From NCBI GenBank assembly GCA_012522855.1, contig JAAYJQ010000017.1:124001-188000 (forward strand): 64,000 nt of DNA, written 5' to 3'. Shown here piece after piece: positions 27,475-27,596 of this stretch (positions are counted from its first letter, which is position 1; every line of letters starts with the position of its first letter). This DNA is from Bacteroidales bacterium (GTDB lineage: Bacteria > Bacteroidota > Bacteroidia > Bacteroidales > UBA932). Below the pieces are notes generated by a model. It did not search any database, had not been told where the DNA came from, and was given only the letters and a program-made list of their open reading frames with translations. The translations under genes were made by a program, and so were the position numbers.

Positions 27475-27522
27475 GGCTATGAATATAGTAAAAACTTGAG
27501 AAATTAATTCATTTTTTCGATA

Positions 27523-27569
27523 ATTAACCTTCTATTAACCTATAAATTAATCTGAATCGTTTTAATTTG
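27523..27569 (+). promoter_or_regulatory. Putative operator/promoter: three heptamers plus -7-like box
   Basis: ATTAACC (27523) -11- ATTAACC (27534) -12- ATTAATC (27546), then 9 nt, then TTAATTTG (27562-27569). Confidence 0.6.
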
Positions 27570-27596
27570 TATCTATTGTCTTAAAGTGATGAAAAA

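What the first reader, a model, noticed from the sequence alone, without database searches (positions are those of the whole stretch)
27475..27596. Three direct heptamers at 11/12 bp spacing upstream of PUL module 1, SARP-operator-like
Seen: ATTAACC-TTCT-ATTAACC-TATAA-ATTAATC, then TGAATCGTT (9 nt), then TTAATTTG, a near match to the TAnnTTTG -7 box. Established: SARPs (ActII-ORF4/DnrI type) bind heptameric direct repeats spaced about one helical turn (11 bp, or multiples) with the last repeat close to the -10. The array lies in the intergenic region shared with the Kelch-SARP gene. Inference: it is that regulator's operator.
Basis: partly seen in the sequence, partly recalled or inferred. Interest (0 to 1): 0.85.

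Follow-up and report, generated by a model that had tools for sequence, protein, structure and literature searches.

The report
Operator of a membrane-bound sugar sensor
Three short repeated DNA words in front of a sugar-utilisation operon are very probably the docking site of a membrane-spanning regulator encoded next door; the same spaced pattern recurs at this regulator's relatives across the phylum Bacteroidota, mostly beside genes for digesting alpha-mannan, so a little-studied class of gut-bacterial sugar switches now has a predicted target code.

Summary
ATTAACC/ATTAACC/ATTAATC lie at 27523-27552, with starts 11 and 12 bp apart and 9 nt before TTAATTTG. In the host genome (2.64 Mb) the spaced motif occurs only three times, all in this gene cluster: here, at 39921-39949 before PUL module 2, and on the minus strand at 63023-62995 before a GH92 operon. 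Among 200 congeneric genomes, 17 of 28 that encode the kelch-SARP have it, against 4 of 172 that do not (Fisher p = 5.5e-14). All 15 close orthologues with usable flanks carry the array, including ones where it lies 3' of the regulator gene. Across 80 loci of the phylum, 11/12 beats every other spacing; in 23 sites chosen on the repeats alone, the -7 box TAnnTTTG falls at 9 or 10 nt in 20 and almost nowhere else. No site checked has a -33 TTTG. The regulator's cytoplasmic domain folds like AfsR/EmbR. Most neighbouring clusters carry GH76/GH92 alpha-mannanases. Best reading: the operator of a membrane-anchored, kelch-sensing SARP that activates alpha-mannan PUL promoters. Direct DNA binding and the inducer remain untested.

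The parts
27523..27529 (+). Repeat R1, ATTAACC (core TTAACC 27524-27529)
27534..27540 (+). Repeat R2, ATTAACC; its end lies 21 nt before the -7 box, where the -33 TTTG would be
27546..27552 (+). Repeat R3, ATTAATC, 12 bp after R2
27562..27569 (+). -7 box TTAATTTG (one mismatch to TAnnTTTG), 9 nt after R3
27503..27509 (+). Possible distal fourth repeat (ATTAATT), about 20 bp upstream of R1; weak here, clearer in relatives
24994..27474 (-). Regulator gene, 826 aa: N-terminal signal helix, beta-sandwich, kelch-type beta-propeller, one transmembrane helix (about 548-584), cytoplasmic SARP domain
24997..25692 (-). Part encoding the SARP domain (residues 595-826)
27597..39768 (+). PUL module 1: GxGYxYP lipoprotein, CarboxypepD-domain protein, SusC, SusD, DUF3823-like, one unassigned
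39921..39949 (+). Second operator TTAATC-5-TTAACC-6-TTAATC before PUL module 2; degenerate -7 box TTATTTTA at 39959-39966
40258..51741 (+). PUL module 2 (paralogous duplicate of module 1: CarboxypepD protein, SusC, SusD, DUF3823, Big_2 protein, one unassigned)
62995..63023 (-). Third operator TTAATC-5-TTAACC-6-ATAATC
62978..62985 (-). -7 box TATCTTTA of the third operator, 9 nt after R3
51743..62953 (-). Operon behind the third operator: GH92 (ATG at 62953), PfkB kinase, D-lyxose-isomerase-type protein, mannitol-dehydrogenase family protein, two unassigned, GH97-GH92 fusion

Best explanation
The array is the operator of the adjacent kelch-SARP regulator. The regulator sits in the inner membrane, with its beta-sandwich and kelch propeller in the periplasm, probably reading a mannan-derived oligosaccharide, and its SARP domain in the cytoplasm. 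When activated, SARP protomers line up on the direct repeats R1-R3 (and perhaps a distal R0). R2 sits where the missing -33 element would be and R3 lies 9 nt from the -7 box TAnnTTTG, so the activator recruits the primary sigma factor to a promoter with no -33 box. In this genome the same operator drives three operons of one alpha-mannan-type cluster. Shown here: sequence, geometry, conservation, co-occurrence, domain fold, gene content. Inferred: binding, activation, ligand, and a mechanism like AfsR's sigma adaptation.
For: Own genome: only three matches to array plus -7 box at up to 3 mismatches, all in this cluster; without R1, the best three (1, 2, 2 mismatches) are the same sites and the rest are at background level. 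Genus: 24 places in 200 genomes, one control match; 17/28 regulator-positive versus 4/172 negative genomes, p = 5.5e-14. All 15 close orthologues with usable flanks (about 10 independent lineages) have the array. In L042, L043, L049 it lies 3' of the regulator, before a co-directional operon, so it is not simply regulator-promoter DNA. Phylum: of 252 geometries, 11/12 is best (43 of 80 loci; median 1); in 23 sites chosen on repeats alone TAnnTTTG (at least 5 of 6) is at gap 9 in 14 and gap 10 in 6, and at only 1 site for each of two other gaps. No -33 TTTG in 28 of 28 aligned sites. Duplicate promoters: array 28/29 identical against 70% in flanks, P = 3.7e-4. SARP fold; BTAD/Trans_reg_C in relatives. 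GH76 or GH92 within 6 kb in 64 of 80 loci.
Against: No binding, footprint or transcription data. The window's own SARP domain does not pass Pfam thresholds by itself (Trans_reg_C E = 0.1, BTAD E = 0.17). The second interval is 12 bp, not the 11 (or 22) of Streptomyces SARP sites. The -7 box here has one mismatch, and module 2's has two. 37 of the 80 phylum loci do not reach the array threshold, and 11 regulator-positive congeneric genomes lack the extended motif, mostly those with distant homologues of 28% identity or less or with truncated contigs.
Confidence: 0.88

Rival explanations
1. The repeats are the site of another activator, such as a hybrid two-component (AraC-type) regulator, the usual PUL regulators, whose sites are two direct repeats about 21 bp apart.
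For: HTCS motifs are direct repeats averaging 21 bp apart (PMC3878776); R0-R1 is about 21 bp and R1-R3 is 23 bp.
Against: No HTCS or AraC gene among the cluster genes scanned. The array follows the kelch-SARP gene across genomes. There are three hexamers at 11/12 bp, not two long sites at 21.
Confidence: 0.05
2. The array is part of the regulator's own promoter (autoregulation) and does not activate the PUL.
For: In this window and in many relatives it lies in the divergent gap next to the regulator start.
Against: Arrays 2 and 3 are 12 and 36 kb from the regulator gene. In L042, L043, L049, L166, L185, L186, L190 and L191 the array is 3' of the regulator. The array-to-(-7) order always points at the PUL gene.
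Confidence: 0.05
3. Chance repeats in AT-rich intergenic DNA.
For: Some 7-mer triple at 10-12 bp spacing appears in 0.75% of shuffles of this gap.
Against: Conservation of word, spacing and -7 distance over the phylum. A 300-genome phylum sample holds only two other matches at up to 2 mismatches (control: 2), against three in this one cluster.
Confidence: 0.02

Closest known systems
SARP activators of Streptomyces (AfsR, ActII-ORF4, DnrI, PimR) and their heptameric direct-repeat operators
   Same: Winged-helix plus BTAD domain by fold; short direct repeats one helical turn apart; last repeat next to the -7/-10 element; an upstream repeat occupying the -35/-33 position.
   Different: Here the SARP domain is C-terminal, behind a transmembrane helix and a periplasmic kelch sensor; repeats are TTAAYC at 11 then 12 bp; partner promoter is the Bacteroidota -7 box; targets are glycan-uptake operons in Bacteroidota, not antibiotic clusters.
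Hybrid two-component systems (HTCS) of Bacteroides PULs
   Same: Membrane-spanning regulator with a periplasmic beta-propeller sensor, encoded beside SusC/SusD operons it is expected to switch on.
   Different: No kinase, receiver or AraC domain; one-component; operator of three hexamers at 11/12 bp instead of two sites about 21 bp apart.
ToxR/CadC-type membrane-tethered one-component activators
   Same: Single-pass membrane protein joining a periplasmic sensor to a cytoplasmic OmpR-type winged helix (from general knowledge).
   Different: Opposite domain order, and the DNA-binding part carries a BTAD domain.
SusR
   Same: Membrane activator of a Bacteroides PUL.
   Different: Predicted sites 67 or 77 bp apart (PMC3878776); different DNA-binding domain.

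Membership tests
SARP regulators | OmpR-type winged helix followed by a bacterial transcriptional activator domain (BTAD) | tested here: met
   AF2 model pLDDT 96; Foldseek: EmbR and AfsR SARP are the only PDB hits below E = 1e-3; Pfam BTAD in 11 and Trans_reg_C in 9 of 21 relatives. The window's own copy alone is below the cut-offs.
SARP regulators | Operator of short direct repeats about 11 bp apart | tested here: met
   Three hexamers at 11 then 12 bp, conserved over the phylum. The 12-bp interval is a departure from the strict 11/22 rule.
SARP regulators | 3' repeat about 8 bp from the -10 element, operator overlapping the -35 position | tested here: met
   TAnnTTTG 9 or 10 nt after the last hexamer in 20 of 23 sites; R2 takes the -33 position and no TTTG is there in 28 of 28. 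Published rule: PMC10936776.
SARP regulators | SARP domain at the N terminus of a soluble protein (typical of Streptomyces members) | tested here: not met
   The domain is C-terminal, behind a predicted transmembrane helix. This is a usual arrangement, not what defines the domain family, so the protein is best called a membrane-anchored SARP-domain regulator.
SARP regulators | Direct DNA binding and recruitment of RNA polymerase as a side-by-side dimer | not testable with these tools
   Needs EMSA, footprinting and in vitro transcription.
HTCS | Histidine kinase, receiver and AraC domains in one protein | tested here: not met
   Regulator's Pfam hits are kelch only, SARP by fold; no such protein among scanned cluster genes.
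HTCS | Two conserved direct sites about 21 bp apart | tested here: not met
   Three hexamers with 11/12 bp intervals as the unique best geometry.
SusR | Direct sites 67 or 77 bp apart | tested here: not met
   motif from PMC3878776.

The most novel reading that the evidence does not exclude
Kelch-SARP proteins form a phylum-wide class of one-component PUL regulators, largely devoted to alpha-mannan, that use a fixed operator code (TTAAYC-5-TTAAYC-6-TTAAYC-9-TAnnTTTG, often with a distal fourth repeat) in place of the -33 element, so SARP-type activation, known from Actinobacteria, also works with the unusual Bacteroidota primary sigma factor.
Probability: 0.6. Interest if true: 0.8.

Novelty: new variant of a known kind. 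Interest (0 to 1): 0.72.

Why it matters
Regulation of Bacteroidota glycan loci is described mainly through HTCS, SusR and ECF sigma systems. A membrane-anchored SARP class with a readable operator would let its targets be predicted from sequence in gut, rumen and soil species, and gives a first handle on how alpha-mannan loci with GH76/GH92 enzymes but no HTCS are switched on. It also offers a test of whether the SARP/sigma contact seen in Streptomyces works with a sigma factor that reads -7/-33 boxes. No paper on SARP or kelch PUL regulators was found in the held open-access library; subscription papers were not searchable.

Tried and rejected
The first genome-contig search with the broad alignment A2 found no conserved stretch; the closer alignment A4 worked. 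Strict TTAAYC triple at 10-12 bp: 7 places, 6 at kelch-SARP loci; the seventh (G011) is inside an ORF at 12/12 spacing with no -7 box, taken as chance. Extended-motif places in G186, G165, G188 and G109 have no SusC, GH76 or GH92 nearby and no regulator hit; taken as chance. The GH2/GH92 operon at 20166 shows no array in its upstream region, so it is not claimed as a target. Distant homologues (about 20-31% identity; L048, L051, L053, L055, L058, L064, L124-L126) seem to keep the geometry with other words, but I set their register by eye, so this is suggestive only. Sequence profile against PDB found the SARP part only weakly (PhoB-type hits); the fold comparison was decisive. Literature searches on BTAD, kelch and SusC returned only unrelated papers.

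Full report
Observation. The three heptamers, their 11 and 12 bp start-to-start spacing, the 9-nt gap and TTAATTTG are exactly as described, at 27523-27569, in the 122-nt gap between the regulator gene (24994-27474, minus) and the plus-strand ORF at 27597. The TTAAYC triple at this spacing was never seen in 20,000 dinucleotide shuffles of the gap, though some repeated 7-mer triple was seen in 0.75%. Within one sequence the case is moderate; the comparative evidence makes it strong.

Two more copies. PUL module 2 is a diverged duplicate of module 1 (coding pieces mostly 71-88% identical). Its upstream region holds the same array at 39921-39949. Between the two copies the 29-bp array is 28/29 identical while the flanks are 70% identical (P = 3.7e-4). 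A third array lies on the minus strand at 63023-62995, with -7 box TATCTTTA at 62985-62978, ahead of a GH92 gene whose likely start is ATG 62953. Searching the genome with the array plus -7 box at up to 3 mismatches returns only these three; dropping R1 returns the same three on top and four others at the control level.

Genus-wide test. The regulator (P0001) has homologues in 28 of 200 congeneric genomes. The extended motif is found at 24 places in 21 genomes, with one match for the reversed control. It is present in 17 of 28 regulator-positive and 4 of 172 regulator-negative genomes. All 15 close orthologues with usable flanks carry the array, about 10 independent lineages, one of them (G164) without a recognisable -7 box and one near-identical group (G037, G063, G125) with a weak R1. 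In L042, L043 and L049 the array is 3' of the regulator gene and precedes the next co-directional operon, which separates it from the regulator's own promoter. Other genera of the family show it too (L122, L127; L128 with 12/12 spacing).

Phylum-wide test. Named loci include Bacteroides, Alistipes, Dysgonomonas, Prevotella, Maribellus, Sphingobacterium and others. Among 252 combinations of spacing and gap, the 11/12 spacings come out on top (39-43 of 80 loci at the threshold; next-best geometry 26; median 1). Many of these loci are near-duplicates, so I repeated it with 23 non-redundant sites chosen on the hexamers alone: TAnnTTTG with at least 5 of 6 matches is at gap 9 in 14 sites and at gap 10 in 6; among the other gaps from 0 to 21 only two have any match, one site each. 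A fourth hexamer 20-22 bp upstream of R1 is present in about half of them. In a 300-genome sample of the phylum only two other matches at up to 2 mismatches occur (control: 2).

Promoter. The Bacteroides primary promoter has TAnnTTTG at -7 and TTTG near -33 (PMC7366714). Here R2 ends 21 nt before the -7 box, in the -33 place, and none of 28 aligned sites has TTTG there. This fits an activator-dependent promoter. In Streptomyces the SARP operator overlaps -35 with the last repeat 8 bp from -10, and AfsR binds as a side-by-side dimer that docks sigma region 4 (PMC10936776; review PMC10972967).

Regulator. Pfam sees only kelch in the window's protein. Its C-terminal 232 residues give a confident model (pLDDT 96) whose only PDB matches below E = 1e-3 are EmbR (2fez, 2ff4) and the AfsR SARP (8hvr, 8k60). 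Relatives hit BTAD (11 of 21) and Trans_reg_C (9 of 21). The full-length model and hydropathy show an N-terminal helix, beta-sandwich, beta-propeller, one long hydrophobic helix around 548-584, then the SARP domain.

Targets. Of the 80 loci, 45 have a GH76 and 23 a GH92 homologue within 6 kb, 64 at least one, and 51 a SusC. The third operon here encodes GH92, a PfkB-type kinase, a D-lyxose-isomerase-type protein, a mannitol-dehydrogenase family protein and a GH97-GH92 fusion, which fits release and use of mannose. Alpha-mannan as substrate is inferred from gene content.

Conclusion. Treating the array as the operator of the kelch-SARP is well supported. It works like a SARP operator and the protein carries a SARP-type domain, but its membrane-anchored, C-terminal arrangement, the 11/12 spacing and the Bacteroidota promoter make it a distinct variant. 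Not shown: binding, activation, ligand.

Noticed in passing
window 39988-40252: Remnant of the GxGYxYP lipoprotein gene at the head of PUL module 2; most of the gene is lost while the operator in front of it is kept.
   Followed up: partly
window 51743-55621 (-): One 1292-aa ORF joins GH97 and GH92 domains.
   Followed up: no
window 37570-39768, 50341-51741, 56811-57719: Cluster proteins with no Pfam family above its cut-off.
   Followed up: no
genomes G291, G267, G304, G252, G387 (loci L108-L112, L117): The SARP domain also occurs on proteins of about 450 aa without the kelch part in other genera of the family.
   Followed up: no
L048, L051, L053, L055, L058, L064, L124-L126: Distant homologues appear to keep the 11/12/9 (or 12/9) geometry with different hexamers, a possible lead to a recognition code.
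   Followed up: partly
L050 (G067): The kelch-SARP gene is split into two reading frames although its operator is intact.
   Followed up: no
Sphingobacterium loci L187-L206: R2, R3 and the -7 box are kept but the first repeat looks shifted.
   Followed up: no
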